From NCBI RefSeq assembly GCF_030148435.1, contig NZ_JASBTN010000024.1, positions 1 to 64,000 of the forward strand: DNA of 64,000 bases. The letters are read 5' to 3'. Shown piece after piece: positions 6,552 to 46,622 of this stretch. The notes beneath the pieces are model-generated. The model had not been told where the DNA came from, did not search any database, and saw only the letters and a program-made list of their open reading frames with translations. Position numbers and translations under genes: made by a program. This DNA is from Aliiroseovarius sp. (lineage in GTDB: Bacteria; Pseudomonadota; Alphaproteobacteria; Rhodobacterales; Rhodobacteraceae). Positions within the stretch are counted from its first letter, which is position 1; each line of letters begins with the position of its first letter.

Positions 6552-7451
6552 TTAGCCACCCATGTGTTCATCCATGAGGTAGGTTGCCATGGCGCGCCTG
6601 TCGGCGTCGGACAGGAAGCTCGTGCCGTACATGACAACTTTTCCCATCGACTCGCCAAAGGCGTCACCGTCGGGTTTGATGCCCGTGCGAAGCGCATAGG
6701 CCAGGCTCTCCACCGTCCAGCCGCGCATCTGAAGGGTATCATAGTCGATGCCCGGGGCCTTGCCCCCGCCCGGAAGCGAAGCGCTGCCTTTGAAGTGCTC
6801 GGTGTCGGATTTCCGCGCCCCGGCGAGATTGCGCCCGGTGTGGCAAGCCGCGCAATGCGCGGCCCCCTCGACCAGCTCCCGTCCGCGGTTCCAGACAGCG
6901 TCGTTTCCTTCCACCGGTTCTGTGCTCGGCGGAGACAGGAACGCCGCCCGCCAGAGTTTCAGCCCCCAACGCTGGTTGAAGGGGAAGGCCATCTCCTGGT
7001 CTCTGGAGGGTTCCGCCACGGCGGGAACCGTCTGGAAGGCCGCCCAGAGATCGGCAATGTCCTGATCCGTGAAATTGCTGTAGAAAGGATAGGTGAAGGC
7101 CGGATAGTAGGCCTCGCCGCTTGGCGAAATGCCTTGCCGCACGGCCTTGGCGAACTCGTCGATCGTCCAGTCACCGATCCCATGTTCCGGATCCGTGGTG
7201 AGGTTGGGCGAATAGAGGGCGCCGAACGGCGTATCCAGCTTGACGCCCCCTGCGAGGGGAACGCCTCCTTCTTCGACGTTGGTATGGCAGGCGATGCACC
7301 CGCTTGCGCGGGCCAGGTAGCCCCCCCGGTTCACGTCGCCCGTCAGGGTGATCGACCCGTCAACCTGGCTGATCGGCCATGCGACAAGCGCCCCGACCAC
7401 ACCGGTCCCGAACACCGACGCGACCAGAGCCGTTCTCAATACCCCGCGCAT
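6552..7451 (-). CDS. Diheme cytochrome c (alcohol-dehydrogenase cytochrome-subunit type)
   Basis: A 299-residue exported or membrane-anchored protein. It has an N-terminal hydrophobic segment (residues 5-27) and two cytochrome domains with CIACH (C52, C55, H56) and CAACH (C200, C203, H204). The ATG at 7451 directly follows the cytochrome c' stop codon (one base between), so this start is preferred over an upstream one. Domain order and motifs such as YSPNLTTDP and YYPAFTYP match diheme cytochromes that accept electrons in periplasmic chains. A clear relative lies at 45732-46622, also directly after a cytochrome c' gene. It probably connects the copper-oxidase locus to respiration. The partner is not proven. 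Confidence 0.92.
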   Translation of the reverse strand: MRGVLRTALVASVFGTGVVGALVAWPISQVDGSITLTGDVNRGGYLARASGCIACHTNVEEGGVPLAGGVKLDTPFGALYSPNLTTDPEHGIGDWTIDEFAKAVRQGISPSGEAYYPAFTYPFYSNFTDQDIADLWAAFQTVPAVAEPSRDQEMAFPFNQRWGLKLWRAAFLSPPSTEPVEGNDAVWNRGRELVEGAAHCAACHTGRNLAGARKSDTEHFKGSASLPGGGKAPGIDYDTLQMRGWTVESLAYALRTGIKPDGDAFGESMGKVVMYGTSFLSDADRRAMATYLMDEHMGG

Positions 7452-7452
7452 G

Positions 7453-8019
7453 TTATTTGCCCTCCGCACGGAACTGCGTGTGGCAGGCGGTACAGGCAAA
7501 GGCGAGCATCATGTAGGCACCATCCGCCGGCATTTCCGCGATTTGTTCCGCAGTCATACCGCCGCCCATCATGCCGGCACCGCCCCCCATCATGTCTGGG
7601 CTGCCACCCATCATCGAGCCCGCGGACATCGTGTCGCCAGCGCCCATCAAGCCGTTGTCTGCCGCCCCGGCCAGCCCTTCGGCGTAAACGCCAAGCTGAT
7701 CGGCCAACTCCGAAAACTCTTCCCACCTGGTCCAGACCGTCGCCCTGGCCTCTGACGGCGCGCCGCCGGTGCCCTCGGGAAACAGCTCTGTCATTCTCTC
7801 GCCTGCATGGCGCGAGAATGTGGCAGCGGCCCGTCGAACGGCATCAGCGTCATAGGCTACCTCGCCGCGCATCATCGGGGTGATGGCCTTGACCGCCTTG
7901 CCCATGTCGGCCATGGCATCCATGCGGTCCTTGACGACACCGTTCGCCCCGCCATGGGCGATGGCCGCACCGGCCGTGGAGGTGGCGATTGCTGCCGCAA
8001 TAATCGTGATCTTCTTCAC
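7453..8019 (-). CDS. Cytochrome c' / c556-type (class II) with Met-rich insertion
   Basis: A 188-residue periplasmic four-helix-bundle cytochrome. The signal peptide ends near residue 21 and the heme site CTACH (C176, C179, H180) is close to the C-terminus, as in class II cytochromes. A stretch at about 125-155 contains repeated MMGG(G) units (MMGGSPDMMGGGAGMMGGGM). The related cytochrome at 45252 lacks this stretch. Met-Gly runs of this kind bind Cu(I) in other copper proteins and resemble the repeat protein at 20594. The insertion lies between the third and fourth helices. The family call is firm. Copper binding by the insert is inferred. Confidence 0.92.
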   Translation of the reverse strand: MKKITIIAAAIATSTAGAAIAHGGANGVVKDRMDAMADMGKAVKAITPMMRGEVAYDADAVRRAAATFSRHAGERMTELFPEGTGGAPSEARATVWTRWEEFSELADQLGVYAEGLAGAADNGLMGAGDTMSAGSMMGGSPDMMGGGAGMMGGGMTAEQIAEMPADGAYMMLAFACTACHTQFRAEGK

Positions 8020-39548: not shown

Positions 39549-39917
39549 TCAGCGCCGCGCGAAGGCCCGGATGATGCCGTAGATTATCAGACCGAAGACG
39601 AGGTAGAGCAGAACGGCAAGCGGCTCAAACGGGTCGATCGGGCCCATGTTCGGTTCCAGGAAATTGACGATCACGAAGCCGGCAGCCGCGAACCCGGCGG
39701 CCAGGGAGACGATCATCGTCAAAAGCTTGGCGAATACGGACCCGCCCCTGGGCTTGTCGTCGGACTGGCCGGTTTCGATGCGAATGTCCTCGTCATTGTT
39801 GACGATGACGATCCGGGTGCCCTCGTCGTCACGCTTGCGGCGACGGCGTGCACCATTTCCGAAAATCCCCAGAACGGCGACCGCGACGACCATGATGACG
39901 ATGACTTCGATGGACAT
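39549..39917 (-). CDS. Small membrane protein, function unknown
   Basis: A 122-residue protein with an N-terminal transmembrane helix (residues 2-20), a charged cytosolic stretch (ARRRRKRDDEGTRIVIVNND) and two further helices (LLTMIVSLAAGFAAAGFVIV and a C-terminal one). No domain is recognised. It is the last gene of the operon led by the RyR/SLOG gene, 22 bases after the preceding gene. Confidence 0.75.
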   Translation of the reverse strand: MSIEVIVIMVVAVAVLGIFGNGARRRRKRDDEGTRIVIVNNDEDIRIETGQSDDKPRGGSVFAKLLTMIVSLAAGFAAAGFVIVNFLEPNMGPIDPFEPLAVLLYLVFGLIIYGIIRAFARR

Positions 39918-39939
39918 GTTTCGTGCCTTTCAGAAAACC

Positions 39940-40245
39940 TCAGAAAACCCAGGCGATCAGCACCCAGATCAGGAGGAAGAAGACGAAGAAGGCCGGCAGG
40001 GTGAACTGGATCTCTCCGATCAGCCCGTCACCGGCGGTGAGCATCAGCACGACGATCACCACCAGCGTCACCAGGAATGCCGAGATCGCCGCCCCCTTCA
40101 GCCCCACCCCGGGCGCCAGGGCGGCGGATACGGACGGGGCAACAAAGACCAGAAGGACCACCACCAGCGCTACGACGACGATCGCAATGATCAGGAACAG
40201 CCGGGTCGTTGACTTGCGCTCTTCCAGGTCTCTGTTCGATGGCAT
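39940..40245 (-). CDS. Small membrane protein, function unknown
   Basis: A 101-residue very hydrophobic protein with three predicted transmembrane helices (FLIIAIVVVALVVVLLVFVA, AISAFLVTLVVIVVLML and a C-terminal FFVFFLLIWVLIAW). A short charged N-terminus (SNRDLEERKSTTR) precedes them. No domain is recognised. It is in the same operon, 12 bases after the PH-like gene. Confidence 0.72.
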   Translation of the reverse strand: MPSNRDLEERKSTTRLFLIIAIVVVALVVVLLVFVAPSVSAALAPGVGLKGAAISAFLVTLVVIVVLMLTAGDGLIGEIQFTLPAFFVFFLLIWVLIAWVF

Positions 40246-40257
40246 GGCGATTGGCTC

Positions 40258-40671
40258 CTACCCGTCAACGATTTCGCGGATGAGATGCGGATCCGGCATG
40301 CCCGCAACGCGGATTTCCGGCTGGTCGCCAGCCGAATAGAACGCGACCTCCGCCACCCCCAGAATCCTCTGAAGAAAGCTCTGGTCGATGCGAATGGACC
40401 GGATCGAGGCGAGGCTCATTTCGGTACGGTCCTTCGCCAGCAAACCGTTTACATAGCGCACTTCGTTATCCGTGATCGTCAGGCGGTGTGCCTTTGACAG
40501 GACAAAAAGAACGAGCCACCCGAGGATGAGCAAAGCCAGAACCAGCAGGATCAGCTGCGGGGCCTGCCCCGACAGGATCAGCGCCAGCGCGACCGCTATG
40601 ACGCTGATCACGAAGACCGCGGGATTGTTGCGCAGCACCGGCGGATTCGCGTCATACCTGACCGATTGCAT
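40258..40671 (-). CDS. Bacterial PH-like membrane protein
   Basis: A 137-residue protein. Two close transmembrane helices (VFVISVIAVALALIL and LILLVLALLILGWLVLFVL) are followed by a PH-like domain (HRLTITDNEVRYVNGLLAKDR, SLASIRSIRIDQSFLQRILG, VAEVAFYSAG). This is the layout of YdbS/YdbT-type bPH2 proteins, which may sense or assemble at the membrane. It lies between the RyR/SLOG pair and two small membrane proteins. Confidence 0.82.
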   Translation of the reverse strand: MQSVRYDANPPVLRNNPAVFVISVIAVALALILSGQAPQLILLVLALLILGWLVLFVLSKAHRLTITDNEVRYVNGLLAKDRTEMSLASIRSIRIDQSFLQRILGVAEVAFYSAGDQPEIRVAGMPDPHLIREIVDG

Positions 40672-40740
40672 CGTGCGATTACCCCCATTGCTTCCCTGAT
40701 CGAATGCTACCCGATTTCGTGCGGGTTTCAAAACTCCGCG

Positions 40741-41727
40741 TCAGAATGGCCACCAGTCGGGCTCGACAATCCAGAACGGGCCTTCCTGGTTGTCAAAGCC
40801 CAACATGCCATTGGCCCAGTAAACGTAGCCGAAAAGCCCGACAACAGCAGCGACGATCAGGATGAGAAACAGGTAGAAACGCAAGATCTTGAAGTAAATC
40901 AGCGTGACGGACCGACGCGGCCGTTCCACATTCACTCCCAGATCGCCGTAGATTTCCGACAGGGCCACTGCGCTCTGAGCGGCCGTATCGGACGCGGCCA
41001 GCCCGGCCCCCACGGCACGGGTGGTCTTCTTGGGAAGGGGTTTGAAATACGGATTCCACTGATTGTCGAAGAACAGAAAACCGACCACCCCCGGGGAGGC
41101 GTAGCGCGCCAGGCGGCCCGTCGGCATCGGTGGCAGGTTGAGATCGGCGTTCTCTTGGGCAAGGGCACGAAACCGCTCCCAGGCCTCCGGATCATTGGGC
41201 ACCATGATCGTCAGGCGGCTGGGGTGCAGGCGGTCACGCACCTGGCGGAGCTCCCAGCCCAGCCCGGGTGTATCGCCACCATAGATCAGGACCAGCCGGG
41301 CTTGCCCCAGCAGATCCAGAACGCATTCATGCCAGTTGTCGTCCTCGAGATAGAGCCGCGCCGCGCCAAGCGGAGGCAGCCGTTCGCCTGGCTGACCGAT
41401 TGCGACAAGCGGTCCGGTGGGGGCGAACATGTCGGCAAATCCCCGTTCCTCGTCGAAAACCGCGGCCTCGTTGGTAAAAGACCTCAGATAGAGGATCGGC
41501 GGGCGGGGGTCGTTGGCCATGACCTCCTGGGCCAGAGGCTGCAGATGCCGGCTGCCCCAGCCCCAGAACCAGAACGCCAGCAAGGCCCCAAGGAGCAGAG
41601 CGGCCCGCCCCGCGTTGTCGCTGTTCGGGTAGAATTCCTGGGCGGCCACGAAGATCGCGAAACCCGATACGATCCCGACCACACGCAGGAAATACCCGAA
41701 GGCTCTGCTTTGTCGCGGTTGCGTCAC
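40741..41727 (-). CDS. Three-TM membrane protein with unassigned alpha/beta domain, partner of the RyR/SLOG protein
   Basis: A 328-residue protein. Two N-terminal transmembrane helices (about 13-29 and 41-57) are followed by a cytosolic domain (about 75-225) and a third helix near the C-terminus (281-303). The domain starts with RPPILYLRSFTNEA and contains ARLVLIYGGDTPGLGWELRQV. The alternating hydrophobic strands and the GL-WE motif recall TIR- or SLOG-like nucleotide-handling folds, but I cannot assign it. The GTG start at 41727 overlaps the stop of the upstream gene (GTGA), so the two proteins are probably made together and interact. Confidence 0.8.
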   Translation of the reverse strand: MTQPRQSRAFGYFLRVVGIVSGFAIFVAAQEFYPNSDNAGRAALLLGALLAFWFWGWGSRHLQPLAQEVMANDPRPPILYLRSFTNEAAVFDEERGFADMFAPTGPLVAIGQPGERLPPLGAARLYLEDDNWHECVLDLLGQARLVLIYGGDTPGLGWELRQVRDRLHPSRLTIMVPNDPEAWERFRALAQENADLNLPPMPTGRLARYASPGVVGFLFFDNQWNPYFKPLPKKTTRAVGAGLAASDTAAQSAVALSEIYGDLGVNVERPRRSVTLIYFKILRFYLFLILIVAAVVGLFGYVYWANGMLGFDNQEGPFWIVEPDWWPF

Positions 41728-44087
41728 GTGGCCCTCCCCGCTTCCCGAGTGTTTTGCGAAATCGTCCTGTTGCGCTCGAAGGGCAGGACATGCGCCTGCG
41801 CGCGCACAGCGCCGGTCCCGGCCCAGCGGTATTCTTGCGGGACCGATCCGCGCCTGGCCCATGCGGCGACATCGCCTGTTCCGCCCGGCCCGGCAGCAGG
41901 CGCACCGTCCCAGACAAGGACAATGTGGTCACAATGCTGCAAAAGCCACGCCCCCAGCGCCGAGAACTGTCGCTGACGTCCTGTTTCTGTCTGGTTGGCG
42001 GGATCGAGAAGCGGCAGCTCAAAGACCTGTTCGGCCTCGTTCAACAACTCGTGAAACTCTTTCAGAGAGTTTCGCCGAGCAGGGTCCGCGGCTGCATTGG
42101 CTGGCGGAAGGAAATCCGCGCGGTAGATATCGAGCGCAAAGGGCAGCGGCACGATCAAACGCGCGCCCAGGCGCGACATGGACCGTTGCGCCACCACCCT
42201 GTCCGCCCCTTCCGCAAGCGGCGAGACCAGTTCGAACACATGTCCCGGGTGGGTGCGGCGGATCTCGTCCAGCGTGGCGTCAATCTTCGAGACCAGCGCC
42301 CGGTTCTTCAGCGAAATCCCCGTGTCGCGATGACCGGAAACGCCCAGCCGTGTCACCCGGGCGATCCGCTTGCCCACGCTTTCCACCAGCGCCGGGATTG
42401 CCCGGACAAGCGCCATGTCATAGGCCCGGACGGCCTCGGGAAGATCCTGCCATGGCAGAAGGTCCGGGTGGAGCTTGCGTTGATCGTCGCGTGATTCGTC
42501 AGGCTGCCACCCCAGGACCAGACGTTCGGCCACCCAGCGATCGTGCTCTGCCCGGGCCATCAGCGCGAACTCGTCCTCCGAAAGCTCCGCAGGCGCATGC
42601 GCGGCATTTTCGGACAGGGTGCAGCCGATCAGGTCCAGCTTGGCGCTGATGTGATCGACAAAGGACCTGTTGGAATAGCGGTACTGTTCACCAAGGTCGG
42701 CCCAGGGCCGGGCAGCAGGCTTTGACATGGTATCCGGCGAACCGGATCGGGACGCCTCGGCGACATAGGTCTGATGGTTGATGCGCGCCATCCTGTCCTG
42801 TTGCTGAGCGACAACCTGGTGCCAGCCAAGCACATTGGGGGAGACGCCGAATGCGGTCACGAGGGTAGATGGATAGGGCCGCGCCGACCCGGCCGTTTCG
42901 CTCCATGTCCACCCCATCATCTGCGGGGAGCAGAAGATGGGGGCACAGCCGCCGGGGCGTGACCTGGTGGCCTCGCGCAGCCGCAGGACGAAATCCACGG
43001 CCACCCAGTCGTCCTCCATGCAAACGACATATTGGCTGAACGGTTCCGCGCCCGCCACAAGGGTATCCGCGAACGCCGTCTCACCGCGAAAATCGGCAGG
43101 GACATGGCCAATCTCGCAAACGGATGCCAGCCGTTCGGCAATCGGAGCAACCCAGGCGGCGTTTTCACAAATCACCGAGATCGCGGGGATCGGTCCGTCG
43201 ACGGTTTGCGCGTGAATGGCGATCTGATGAATGATCTCCCTTGCAAGAGGCCCCTCCCCGAACAGGGCGATATTGGGCCGATGGCGTCCAAGCCATTTCG
43301 CATATCGCCAAGGCGGAAAGCGCAGCACAAACTGCCGCGCGGCCGCCTCTTCCGGGCTGTAGAATTCGATCTTCGGGGCGGGATCTACCGCCAGGGACTG
43401 ATCTTCGATGACCTGATCGCGAAAGTGCGACGCATTGGCATGGCAAATGATCCGCGGCTGTTTCGCCGTGGCGGAAACGTCCGCTCCGATCTGCGCGGAG
43501 ATCAGACGCGAGATCGCGATATTCTCGTGATCCCCGCCACAGAACACAATGATTTCCGACGCTCTGGCTGCGCCGGCCTGCCGCAGGGGTTCCGCTGCCC
43601 CGGCGTCTCCACCAACGAAGAAAAACCGTCGTGGCCGCGGCACGAACACCCGCGCCATGGTTTCGCCCCGGTCAATCGCAACCACCCGCTTGCCCTGCGC
43701 CAGGCTGTCACGGATCAGCGCCTGGCCGCGCGCGCCCATGCCGACCACCACGGTGTGCCCCCTGACCAGACGGCGATGAAAGAAGCGGCTGGCAGCGTCG
43801 GCAAGATCACTCCAAACGAGCTGAAGGAACGCAAATATCGTGACAACCGGCGCAAGGAATGCCGCGCTCAACAACGCCCAATGCGCAGAGCCCGGACCAC
43901 CGGGCAGTTGTTCCAACACGCGCCCCTCGACCACGAACAGCTGAACCACGCCGTAAAGGTCATCCACGAATTCCCTGTCGCCGATGAAGTCGGTCCAGCT
44001 GCGCGCGCCTTTCAGCCCGAACAGAGCCATGCCGCTGACAAAGCAGAACAGCAGGATAAGCCATAGCCAGACCGGAAATCTCCGCAT
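41724..44087 (-). CDS. Membrane RCK-RyR-SLOG multidomain protein
   Basis: A 787-residue protein with a rare domain set. Two transmembrane helices (about 5-24 and 68-92) are followed by a TrkA/RCK-like Rossmann domain (HTVVVGMGARGQALIRD, 111-127), then a second Rossmann motif (NIALFGEGPLAREIIHQ, 272-288). A prokaryotic RyR domain (about 430-570) contains the typical AEHDRWVAERLVLGW and HPDLLPWQDLPEAVRAYD. The C-terminal SLOG-like domain (580-770) has LGVSGHRD, SPLAEGADRVVAQ and CDHIVLVWDG. The ATG at 44087 has GGGAGGGG upstream. SLOG and RyR domains are predicted to bind nucleotide-derived signals in conflict systems, and RCK domains gate ion flow or sense NAD-type ligands. It is the first gene of a five-gene operon. 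Confidence 0.9.
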   Translation of the reverse strand: MRRFPVWLWLILLFCFVSGMALFGLKGARSWTDFIGDREFVDDLYGVVQLFVVEGRVLEQLPGGPGSAHWALLSAAFLAPVVTIFAFLQLVWSDLADAASRFFHRRLVRGHTVVVGMGARGQALIRDSLAQGKRVVAIDRGETMARVFVPRPRRFFFVGGDAGAAEPLRQAGAARASEIIVFCGGDHENIAISRLISAQIGADVSATAKQPRIICHANASHFRDQVIEDQSLAVDPAPKIEFYSPEEAAARQFVLRFPPWRYAKWLGRHRPNIALFGEGPLAREIIHQIAIHAQTVDGPIPAISVICENAAWVAPIAERLASVCEIGHVPADFRGETAFADTLVAGAEPFSQYVVCMEDDWVAVDFVLRLREATRSRPGGCAPIFCSPQMMGWTWSETAGSARPYPSTLVTAFGVSPNVLGWHQVVAQQQDRMARINHQTYVAEASRSGSPDTMSKPAARPWADLGEQYRYSNRSFVDHISAKLDLIGCTLSENAAHAPAELSEDEFALMARAEHDRWVAERLVLGWQPDESRDDQRKLHPDLLPWQDLPEAVRAYDMALVRAIPALVESVGKRIARVTRLGVSGHRDTGISLKNRALVSKIDATLDEIRRTHPGHVFELVSPLAEGADRVVAQRSMSRLGARLIVPLPFALDIYRADFLPPANAAADPARRNSLKEFHELLNEAEQVFELPLLDPANQTETGRQRQFSALGAWLLQHCDHIVLVWDGAPAAGPGGTGDVAAWARRGSVPQEYRWAGTGAVRAQAHVLPFERNRTISQNTREAGRAT

Positions 44088-44258: not shown

Positions 44259-45161
44259 TCACCGATTGTCCGGCGACCCATTCCCCCGGGAGGGCTCGGA
44301 GGACCGACGCTGTTTCAGCCGCTCGAACGCGGATTGCATTTCCTCGGCGATGAAGTTCTGAACCATCTGGATGCGGACATTTCGGCCAACCTCTTCCTGG
44401 ATGGCGCTCCAGATCGGAACCGAAAGCGCTGGCACGTCTTCGCGAACGCTCTGAATTCGACTGTCCGGGTCTCCCAGGAACCTTGGCAGGAAGGCCCTTC
44501 CCAACCCGGCGGCAACCATCTCGCGGACCACAAGAAAACTGTCGGCTTCACAGAGAATACGGCTGTTCGGTATGTTTCTGCCCATCCATTTGGCCGCTGC
44601 CGACCGGGTCAGGCCGGCACCAAGACCTATCCACACCTCGGTCCGGGGATCGGCGGTATAGACGCCGAATTCCAGGTCCCCCGCGAAAACGCCAAGCATC
44701 CCCTCTTCCAGGCGTGGCGTCGGCCGGATCGCGACATCCGCCGCCAACCGGGACAGGTCATGGTGGGTATTCGCGCTCAACAGGCGGAGTGACAGTTCGG
44801 GATAGGTTGCCCGGATTGTCTTCAGAATCGGCGGCAGCACGACCTGAGAAATACTGTCCGTGGACGTAATACGCACCGTTCCCGACAGGGTCTCGTCAGA
44901 GCCAAGCACGGCACGATCCACGGAATACACCGCGTCCTCGACATTGCGCGCGGCCAGCAGGATCGCTTCCGCTTCGGGCAGGACGCTATAGCCGGACTGC
45001 GACTTGCGAAACACGGGCCGCCCGCAGCGCTGTTCGAAAGCCGCGACACGGCGCATCACCGTCGCATGGGTGACGCCCAGCCGACGCGCGGTCGCGTTCA
45101 GCGATCCCTCGTCCGCGACCGCCAGTACGAACTTGATATCATCCCAGTTGCTCTTGTTCAT
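44259..45161 (-). CDS. LysR-family transcriptional regulator
   Basis: A 300-residue regulator with an N-terminal helix-turn-helix (FVLAVADEGSLNATARRLGV, THATVMRRVAAFEQRCG) and a LysR effector domain. It is divergent from the cytochrome c'/diheme cytochrome pair, with 90 bases between the starts, and may regulate it. It is downstream of nothing in the same direction, and 171 bases separate it from the RyR/SLOG operon start. Confidence 0.92.
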   Translation of the reverse strand: MNKSNWDDIKFVLAVADEGSLNATARRLGVTHATVMRRVAAFEQRCGRPVFRKSQSGYSVLPEAEAILLAARNVEDAVYSVDRAVLGSDETLSGTVRITSTDSISQVVLPPILKTIRATYPELSLRLLSANTHHDLSRLAADVAIRPTPRLEEGMLGVFAGDLEFGVYTADPRTEVWIGLGAGLTRSAAAKWMGRNIPNSRILCEADSFLVVREMVAAGLGRAFLPRFLGDPDSRIQSVREDVPALSVPIWSAIQEEVGRNVRIQMVQNFIAEEMQSAFERLKQRRSSEPSRGNGSPDNR

Positions 45162-45251
45162 TTTTTAACAGATATCCAAAATTTTCTGCCAGTTGAACGA
45201 AAAATTGGGCGTGCTAGGCTCGGCTGCAGTTTTCGTACCAAGGAGTTCTTC

Positions 45252-45719
45252 ATGAAAACCTCTGCCATCCTGTCCGCCGTGAGCCTCGCCGCAACCCTTG
45301 TCGCCGGGACCGCTTTTGCCGACGACAGCCGCCACGCGGCCGTAAAGGCCCGCACGGCCATCATGGGGCTCTATGCCAACAACCTTGGCCAGCTCGGCGC
45401 CATGGCGAAGGGCGAAGCCGACTACAATGCCGAAGCCGCAACCAAGGCCGCCAACAACCTGGCGCTTCTGGTGCAGCTCGACCAGTCCACCCTGTGGCCA
45501 CAGGGCTCTGACAACGGCGCCATGGACGGAACACGCGCCCTGCCCGACCTGTGGCAGAATTTCCCCGACGTGATGGCGAAGGGCGAAGCCCTTGGCAAAG
45601 CCGTGACCACGATGCAGGGCGCGGCGGGCACCGATCTGGCCTCGCTTCAGGCGGCCATGGGCGGACTCGGCGGAGCATGCAGCGCCTGCCACAAGGCCTA
45701 CCGCGCGCCCGAGAACTGA
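45252..45719 (+). CDS. Cytochrome c' / c556-type (class II)
   Basis: A 155-residue periplasmic cytochrome with a signal peptide ending near residue 23 (AGTAFA) and a C-terminal heme site CSACH (motif GACSACHKAYRA). Four-helix-bundle features and length match class II cytochromes c. The ATG at 45252 has AAGGAG upstream. It lacks the Met-rich insertion of the relative at 7453. It precedes a diheme cytochrome by 12 bases, the same gene order as in the copper island. Confidence 0.93.
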   Translation: MKTSAILSAVSLAATLVAGTAFADDSRHAAVKARTAIMGLYANNLGQLGAMAKGEADYNAEAATKAANNLALLVQLDQSTLWPQGSDNGAMDGTRALPDLWQNFPDVMAKGEALGKAVTTMQGAAGTDLASLQAAMGGLGGACSACHKAYRAPEN

Positions 45720-45731
45720 TCCGGTCCGGTC

Positions 45732-46622
45732 ATGCGTAGATTTTTAGGGGTGGTCCTGATTGCCGGGGCCATCTCCGCAATCACCGGATGGGTTCTCACC
45801 GCCCCGGTATCCCTGGATAAAACGGCCCTTGCCGGAATTACGCCCGACCCCGAACGAGGGCGTGCAGTGTTCTTTGCCGGGGGCTGTGCCGCGTGCCATT
45901 CCGCCCCCGAAGCCAGCGGAGAGGACAGGCTGCTCCTGGGTGGCGGACGCGGTTTCGCCACGGATTTCGGCACGTTCTATGCGCCCAACATCTCCCCCCA
46001 CCCGGAAGCGGGGATCGGCCAATGGTCCGTTCTGGAGCTGGCCAATGCGCTGTTGTACGGCACCAGCCCGAACGGGCAGCATTATTATCCCGCCTTTCCC
46101 TACACATCCTATGCGCAGATGACGCTTGAAGACGCGGTTTCGCTGCATGCCTTCCTGGGCACCCTGCCCCTGGTCGATACACCGAACCGACCGCATGACG
46201 TCAGTTTTCCCTTCAACATCCGGCGCACGCTGGGGGGGTGGAAGCTGCTGTTCAACCGGGGGGGATGGGTCGTGGAAGGCGAACTGACCGAACAGCAGGC
46301 GCGCGGGCGCTACCTGGTCGAGGGGCTTGGACATTGCGGTGAGTGCCACACCGCGCGCAACCTGTTGGGAGGGGTCCGTCTTGGCGCCTGGCTGGCCGGT
46401 GCACCAAACCCCAATGGCAAAGGGCGCATTCCGGATATCACCGCTGCCGGGCTCGACTGGTCCGAGAGCGACATCGCCGAGTATCTCAAATCCGGCTTCA
46501 CCCCCGAATTCGATACCGCAGGCGGCGAAATGACCGATGTGATCGAGAACACAAGCCAACTGACCGATGAGGACCGCGCGGCCATTGCAGCCTATCTGAA
46601 ACGCGTGCCCGGGCTGCCCTGA
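45732..46622 (+). CDS. Diheme cytochrome c
   Basis: A 296-residue exported or anchored protein with an N-terminal hydrophobic segment and two heme sites: CAACH near residue 52 and CGECH near 202. Motifs (FYAPNISPHPEAGIG, YYPAFPYTSYAQM, RYLVEGLGHCGECH) align with the diheme cytochrome at 6552-7451. It probably receives electrons from, or gives electrons to, the upstream cytochrome c'. The electron donor is unknown. Confidence 0.93.
   Translation: MRRFLGVVLIAGAISAITGWVLTAPVSLDKTALAGITPDPERGRAVFFAGGCAACHSAPEASGEDRLLLGGGRGFATDFGTFYAPNISPHPEAGIGQWSVLELANALLYGTSPNGQHYYPAFPYTSYAQMTLEDAVSLHAFLGTLPLVDTPNRPHDVSFPFNIRRTLGGWKLLFNRGGWVVEGELTEQQARGRYLVEGLGHCGECHTARNLLGGVRLGAWLAGAPNPNGKGRIPDITAAGLDWSESDIAEYLKSGFTPEFDTAGGEMTDVIENTSQLTDEDRAAIAAYLKRVPGLP

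What the first reader, a model, noticed from the sequence alone, without database searches (positions are those of the whole stretch)
39549..44087. Five-gene membrane operon with an RCK-RyR-SLOG protein: candidate undescribed nucleotide-signalling or defence system
Seen in sequence: a 787-residue protein joins two membrane helices, two Rossmann motifs, a RyR domain (AEHDRWVAERLVLGW) and a C-terminal domain with SGHRD, SPLAEGADR and a CDHIVLVWDG strand typical of SLOG folds. Its stop overlaps the GTG of a three-TM protein with an unassigned domain (RPPILYLRSF, GL-WE). A PH-like protein and two tiny membrane proteins complete the operon. Established: SLOG, RyR and TrkA-N domains have been grouped by comparative genomics as parts of predicted nucleotide-centred conflict systems. 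Inference: the large protein senses a nucleotide signal and the partner acts at the membrane, for example by altering ion flow or membrane integrity.
Basis: partly seen in the sequence, partly recalled or inferred. Interest (0 to 1): 0.82.

Follow-up and report, generated by a model that had tools for sequence, protein, structure and literature searches.

The report
Membrane RyR-SLOG protein with TIR-like partner
Two overlapping bacterial genes encode a channel-shaped membrane protein carrying two nucleotide-sensor-type domains (one also found in animal ryanodine receptors) and a new membrane-anchored partner that may make the signal; they look like a Thoeris-type immune pair that kills or stalls the cell through its membrane, though no function has been tested.

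Summary
The observation largely holds. Gene E (787 aa) has two TM helices, an RCK/TrkA-N region, a Pfam-significant RyR domain and a C-terminal Rossmannoid domain best matched to LOG (SLOG). Gene D starts inside E's stop (GTGA) and belongs to a family with no Pfam or PDB sequence match: membrane-anchored, predicted Rossmannoid core, invariant WE motif, faintly TIR-like. The five-gene operon is not supported: the E-D pair recurs in Psychromarinibacter, but no homologues of genes C, B or A turned up there. Context supports signalling or conflict. D-family genes sit beside the same SLOG family and/or small membrane proteins (8xMP, SLATT) in other phyla; E-type proteins lie near TIR, DUF4062, nSTAND, patatin, caspase and SLOG-SLATT genes at 10 of 11 further loci. 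E keeps the four cADPR-contacting residues (H, W, H, D) reported for phage RyDEP, at identical spacing. No scanned E relative has the K+ channel filter. Best reading: D makes or senses an NAD-derived signal and E answers it at the membrane, like Thoeris with a channel-shaped effector. D's enzymatic nature and the defence role are inferred. New variant of a known kind.

The parts
41724..44087 (-). Gene E: 787-aa membrane protein TM2-RCK-RyR-SLOG (stop codon included)
   Evidence: Translation; Pfam; homologues
44001..44081 (-). E transmembrane segment 1 (aa 3-29)
   Evidence: Hydropathy
43800..43889 (-). E transmembrane segment 2 (aa 67-96); the pore-helix-like DLYGVVQLF lies between TM1 and TM2; no TxGYG filter
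   Evidence: Hydropathy; filter search; profile match of aa ~75-195 to GsuK 4gx0 inner helix plus RCK
43461..43751 (-). E RCK/TrkA-N Rossmann domain (aa ~113-209)
   Evidence: Pfam PF02254 E=1.9e-8
42918..43280 (-). E second Rossmann-like region (aa ~270-390, motif GEGPLAREI)
   Evidence: Sequence motif; two-stretch matches of the family profile to TrkA/GsuK
42384..42563 (-). E RyR domain (aa ~509-568), with H515, W518, H540, D557
   Evidence: Pfam PF02026 E=3.4e-9; residue table; RyDEP residues from PMC13232231
41772..42350 (-). E C-terminal SLOG-type domain (SGHRD ... SPLAEGADR ... LVWDG ... GGTGD)
   Evidence: AlphaFold2 model; Foldseek LOG 5its_C prob 0.95; family alignment
40741..41727 (-). 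Gene D: 328-aa membrane-anchored protein with Rossmannoid core, start codon inside E's stop
   Evidence: Translation; model; family alignment
41023..41511 (-). D core domain (aa ~73-235): LYLRSF strand, PGE-LP loop, DDxW, invariant W158-E159
   Evidence: Alignment of 39 relatives; model; hhalign with TIR
40258..40671 (-). Gene C: bPH_2 protein, downstream; not shown to belong
   Evidence: Pfam; not detected beside E-D of L047; homologues elsewhere without E/D
39940..40245 (-). Gene B: small membrane protein, downstream; not shown to belong
   Evidence: Hydropathy; not detected in L047
39549..39917 (-). Gene A: small membrane protein, downstream; not shown to belong
   Evidence: Hydropathy; not detected in L047

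Best explanation
E and D form a two-gene, membrane-based nucleotide-signalling system that works like Thoeris, most likely for anti-phage defence. D is a membrane-anchored Rossmannoid protein, probably a diverged member of the TIR-DrHyd-SLOG class, whose invariant Glu159 sits in the helix after strand 3 where TIR domains carry their catalytic Glu. When triggered it makes an NAD-derived signal of the ADPR/cADPR type. E binds that signal through its SLOG and/or RyR domain and passes the change through its RCK module to a 2TM channel-like membrane part, which depolarises or permeabilises the membrane and stops the infected cell. RyR may instead, or also, hydrolyse the signal as an off-switch, since the glycosidase dyad residues are kept. 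Shown: domains, pair conservation, coupling of start and stop, gene contexts, residue conservation, lack of a K+ filter. Inferred: D's catalysis, the ligand, pore opening, and the defence role.
For: Pair conserved in a second genus: E 50% identical overall, D 55%, D 78 bp downstream of E on the same strand. D-family genes in Streptomyces and one proteobacterium (L046) lie within 2 kb of the same SLOG family in 9 other loci of about 44, never farther off within the fetched flanks, and near 8xMP membrane genes in about 15. TM-RCK-RyR relatives elsewhere lie adjacent to or near TIR (L030, L095, L128), DUF4062 (L028, L098), SLOG plus SLATT/DUF4231 and/or patatin (L028, L031, L032, L093, L094), nSTAND1-FGE (L096). 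TIR beside 3 of 12 by chance is about 5e-8 on a rough background. SLOG is a separate neighbouring gene in L028, L031, L032, L093 and L094 but fused in window and L047. HWHD of RyDEP is kept in E and 10 of 14 relatives. D vs TIR profile: score 23.2 against 0 of 150 block shuffles (max 22.0), and Glu159 aligns with the TIR Glu. SLOG of ThsA senses cADPR isomers in Thoeris (PMC11204291; fold in PMC7272460).
Against: HHalign probability for D versus TIR is only 5-8%, no Pfam TIR match, and Foldseek with the D model finds no confident relative and no TIR among the top 50. D's WE differs from the usual TIR WxxxE. No selectivity filter, so a pore is not proven. The window holds no other recognised defence gene (by inspection). 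The intact E-D pair is known from two genomes only. No experiment.
Confidence: 0.5

Rival explanations
1. E's SLOG domain is the signal-making enzyme or E is self-contained, and D is a non-catalytic membrane partner or second effector that senses the trigger.
For: SLOG/LOG domains include nucleotide-cleaving enzymes (PMC9503650); E's SLOG keeps its GGT and LAEGAD-type motifs nearly invariant across 17 relatives. D's likeness to TIR is weak.
Against: D has invariant W132, W158 and E159 across 39 relatives from several phyla, typical of an active site; in ThsA-type systems SLOG is the sensor.
Confidence: 0.2
2. E-D is a housekeeping ion-homeostasis or redox-sensing module: RCK binds NAD(H), E regulates ion flow, D tunes it; no role in defence.
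For: RCK domains of TrkA, KefC and GsuK regulate K+ transport (profile matches); window neighbours are metabolic genes.
Against: Very patchy occurrence (1 of 397 sampled genomes of the family has the E architecture), no K+ filter in the relatives scanned, and relatives lying among TIR, nSTAND, caspase, patatin and SLATT genes.
Confidence: 0.15
3. RyR in E is mainly a signal-destroying domain (as in phage RyDEP), so E is a self-limiting sensor whose RyR resets the system.
For: Catalytic dyad residues H75/D117 of RyDEP correspond to H515/D557.
Against: The other tested RyDEP homologues did not hydrolyse; six of eight bound the signals. D557 is replaced in L028, L094 and L098.
Confidence: 0.15
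4. The first reader's five-gene operon acts as one system, with C, B and A as accessory membrane parts.
For: Same strand, gaps of 69, 12 and 22 bp.
Against: No A/B/C homologue detected at the E-D pair in Psychromarinibacter; C homologues elsewhere lie apart from E/D; promoter-like site before C.
Confidence: 0.1

Closest known systems
Thoeris type I (ThsB TIR + ThsA SIR2-SLOG)
   Same: Putative NAD-processing Rossmannoid protein next to a SLOG-containing effector; a TIR with a ThsB_TIR match precedes a TM-RCK-RyR gene in relative L128.
   Different: D is not a recognised TIR; the effector is a 2TM-RCK-RyR membrane protein, not SIR2; this SLOG family has no Pfam model.
SLOG-SLATT nucleotide-centred conflict systems (Burroughs et al. 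2015, not held; cited in PMC7272460, PMC7159879)
   Same: Same SLOG family, here found fused to or beside SLATT/DUF4231 2TM proteins in relatives.
   Different: The membrane part is an RCK-RyR channel-like module instead of SLATT; a D-family gene is added.
Phage RyDEP (PMC13232231)
   Same: PF02026 RyR domain with H-W-H-D ligand residues at identical spacing.
   Different: RyDEP is a phage anti-defence protein without a membrane module; E is a large cellular membrane protein.
GsuK-type multi-ligand 2TM-RCK K+ channels (4gx0)
   Same: Inner helix followed by RCK; profile match E=6.9e-13.
   Different: No TxGYG filter in E or in the scanned relatives; RyR and SLOG added.
Animal RyR and TRPM channels
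   Same: RyR repeat (PDB RyR matches down to 8e-27 with the family profile); TRPM channels carry a SLOG-type domain (from general knowledge, not tested).
   Different: Only the domains are shared; E has a 2TM-RCK scaffold.

Membership tests
RyR domain (PF02026) | Pfam score above curated cut-off | tested here: met
   37.3 bits against cut-off 27.4
RyR domain (PF02026) | Ligand-binding H, W, H, D residues of RyDEP/RyR R12 | tested here: met
   H515, W518, H540, D557; spacing +3, +25, +42 as in H75, W78, H100, D117
RCK/TrkA-N | PF02254 above cut-off | tested here: met
   35.1 bits against 23.8
K+ channel | TxGYG selectivity filter | tested here: not met
   Absent from E (sequence) and from all 14 profile hits scanned, 11 of them TM-RCK-RyR proteins
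SLOG superfamily | Rossmannoid fold similar to LOG/DprA/MoCo carrier | tested here: inconclusive
   Good model; top-probability Foldseek hit is LOG 5its_C at 0.95, but no E-value below 0.001; no Pfam match
TIR domain (for D) | Pfam TIR or significant profile match | tested here: not met
   No TIR family among 45 D relatives; HHalign probability 5-8%
TIR domain (for D) | Catalytic Glu in helix after strand 3 | tested here: met
   E159 invariant in 39 of 39, in helix 154-166 after strand 145-149, aligned to the TIR Glu
TIR domain (for D) | TIR-like fold against solved structures | tested here: inconclusive
   Foldseek gives only generic Rossmannoid hits, none confident
Thoeris | Recognisable ThsB TIR plus ThsA effector genes | tested here: not met
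   PADLOC no match; D not a Pfam TIR
Thoeris | cADPR-type signal and anti-phage activity | not testable with these tools
   Needs biochemistry and plaque assays
Anti-phage defence system | Location in a defence island | tested here: not met
   Window neighbours look metabolic; relatives lie in conflict-type loci

The most novel reading that the evidence does not exclude
E is a cADPR-gated, channel-like immune effector that unites the two nucleotide-sensing domain types of animal Ca2+-signalling channels (RyR repeat and TRPM-type SLOG) in one bacterial protein, and D is a member of an undescribed membrane-bound branch of signal-making TIR-like enzymes, found across several phyla. It would give a bacterial counterpart of cADPR-RyR signalling.
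Probability: 0.3. Interest if true: 0.88.

Novelty: new variant of a known kind. Interest (0 to 1): 0.68.

Why it matters
Whether cADPR acts through the RyR repeat is an old open question for animal RyRs. A compact bacterial protein with an RyR domain carrying the complete ligand site, a SLOG domain and a channel-like scaffold, beside a candidate signal-making gene, makes it testable by simple reconstitution. D also defines a family without a Pfam model that travels with SLOG sensors in more than one bacterial phylum, a likely missing piece of SLOG-based conflict systems. The 2TM-RCK-RyR proteins next to TIR genes look like an effector class of TIR-type immunity; no description of it was found in the open-access library searched, although the founding comparative-genomics paper and the December 2025 TIR survey were not held.

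Tried and rejected
Scanning genome contigs with E alone found no confirmed relative, and an eight-row D alignment was too diverse to scan with; a four-row one worked. Viral contigs: no D relative; phage records: no E relative. PADLOC and NCBIfam gave nothing useful. PDB profile searches with D and SLOG gave chance-level hits, apart from a weak DprA hint. Foldseek of D found only generic Rossmann folds, so D is not called a TIR domain. D versus SLOG and versus RCK profiles scored lower than D versus TIR. A greedy ORF choice picked antisense frames in these high-GC genomes; a third-position GC criterion was used later, and it still preferred an antisense frame over E-D in L047, so blastp placement was used there.
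Full report
What is in the sequence. Gene E (41727-44087, minus) encodes 787 residues. Pfam recognises TrkA_N (E=1.9e-8) and RyR (E=3.4e-9), each above its cut-off. Hydropathy shows two membrane segments before the RCK region. Searching the PDB with a profile of seven E relatives gives ryanodine receptors for the RyR stretch, and TrkA, KefC and GsuK for the RCK stretch, the GsuK match including the inner helix. The K+ filter motif is absent from E and from all 14 profile hits scanned (a further relative, L128, came later and was not scanned), so E has a channel-like layout but is not a K+ channel by its defining motif.

The C-terminal domain has no Pfam match. Seventeen relatives share GH...(S)xLAEGAD...WDG...GGT. 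AlphaFold2 gives a confident Rossmannoid model (pLDDT 85, pTM 0.83). Foldseek has no match at E<=0.001, but its highest-probability match is LOG 5its_C at 0.95, and further LOG-type entries appear. The same family is fused in other genomes to DUF4231/SLATT 2TM domains, the known partner of SLOG.

Gene D (40741-41727) starts with GTG inside E's TGA. It belongs to a family found by scanning one genome for each of 84,980 species with a four-row alignment: 38 loci, mostly Streptomyces and relatives, but also desulfobacterial, verrucomicrobial, alpha- and gammaproteobacterial, bacteroidete and Atopobiaceae genomes. In 39 aligned members F84, P113, G121, W132, W158 and E159 are invariant. No Pfam family and no PDB sequence matches it convincingly. 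The model (pLDDT 86, pTM 0.79) shows two N-terminal helices, an alternating a/b core and a C-terminal TM helix. Foldseek gives only generic Rossmann hits. Profile-profile comparison with a TIR alignment scores 23.2, above RCK (14.1), SLOG (17.3), reversed controls (11-13) and all 150 block shuffles (mean 12.7, max 22.0), and puts E159 on the TIR catalytic Glu; the probability is nevertheless only 5-8%. I read D as a probable but unproven member of the TIR-DrHyd-SLOG class described in PMC9503650.

Is it one system? The closest relative, Psychromarinibacter sediminicola (Rhodobacterales), has E (50%) and D (55%) adjacent in the same order. No homologue of C, B or A was detected in that 21-kb locus. 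C homologues in three other genomes of the family are not near E or D, and a promoter-like site lies between D and C. The unit is E-D. It is rare: one of 397 sampled genomes of the family has E's full architecture, the window's own.

Gene context of relatives. SLOG genes of E's family lie within 2 kb of D-family genes in L043, L046, L054, L061, L062, L063, L073, L075 and L083, never farther away within the fetched flanks, and are fused to E in window and L047. 8xMP (PF24838) membrane genes lie within 1.4 kb of D in about 15 loci. Streptomyces loci are related to one another, so these counts are not independent events; the Rhodobacterales, Streptomyces and L046 cases are separate lineages.

TM-RCK-RyR genes without D, 11 loci besides the window and L047: L030 beside a TIR-WD40 gene; L128 overlapping, in the same direction, a gene with TIR_2 and ThsB_TIR matches; L095 near TIR-nSTAND1-WD40 and caspase-FGE-sulfatase; L028 beside DUF4062-AAA-TPR, with SLOG and patatin near; L098 near DUF4062-STAND-WD40; L096 near nSTAND1-FGE; L031 in an operon-like row with SLATT and SLOG; L032 with patatin and SLOG-DUF4231; its sister L093 with SLOG-DUF4231; L094 with patatin and SLOG-SLATT; L033 without an evident partner. 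On a rough background of 22 TIR hits in 41 genomes, three TIR neighbours in 12 loci has a chance of about 5e-8; that is an estimate, not a controlled test.

Ligand logic. [quoted passage not shown] the other tested homologues bind without cleaving or do neither (PMC13232231). E has H515, W518, H540 and D557, with identical spacing, as do 10 of 14 relatives. ThsA's SLOG domain is a sensor of cADPR isomers (PMC7272460, PMC11204291). E thus carries two domains of types known to bind cADPR isomers, on a membrane module, next to a gene that takes the place TIR genes hold in some relatives.

Mechanism. Most likely (0.5): a trigger activates D, which makes an ADPR-type signal; E binds it by SLOG and/or RyR, and its TM part opens or disrupts the membrane. 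Shown here are domains, adjacency, conservation and contexts. Catalysis by D, the ligand, pore opening and phage defence are inferred. The window neighbourhood is ordinary, so defence rests on the relatives.

Novelty. Not a recognised Thoeris system (PADLOC no match; D not a Pfam TIR), but it probably works like one. New relative to what could be checked: the D family, the fused TM-RCK-RyR-SLOG architecture paired with it, and the recurrent TIR/SLOG company of TM-RCK-RyR genes. Two key papers were not held, so priority cannot be claimed.

Noticed in passing
L128:9667-14684 (G878): In another genome of the window's family, a gene with TIR_2 and ThsB_TIR matches overlaps a TM-RCK-RyR gene in the same direction: a possible two-gene Thoeris-like system with an RCK-RyR effector.
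   Followed up: partly
L095:8266-17490 (G515): TM-RCK-RyR next to a caspase-FGE-sulfatase gene and a TIR-nSTAND1-WD40 gene.
   Followed up: partly
L032:3327-8742 and L093:8051-13427: Cluster of TM-RCK-RyR and SLOG-DUF4231, with a patatin-like phospholipase gene between them in L032: two membrane-directed effectors with one SLOG sensor.
   Followed up: partly
L054:9368-11933 and similar Streptomyces loci: D-family gene, 8xMP octameric membrane protein and stand-alone SLOG gene in a row, in some loci with DUF4328; looks like an undescribed actinobacterial system.
   Followed up: partly
L097:7041-9563 (G569): An 840-aa protein with a C-terminal RyR domain; the N-terminal part resembles RelA/SpoT (by eye only), and the search reported an in-frame TAG.
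   Followed up: no
L038:6967-9894 (G303): Two divergent RyR-domain genes side by side, one of 112 aa and one of 795 aa, both with the H-W-H-D residues.
   Followed up: no
window 6552-8019 and 45066-46622: Two apparently similar pairs of a cytochrome c'-type gene and a cytochrome c gene at different places in the window, a possible duplication (by eye).
   Followed up: no
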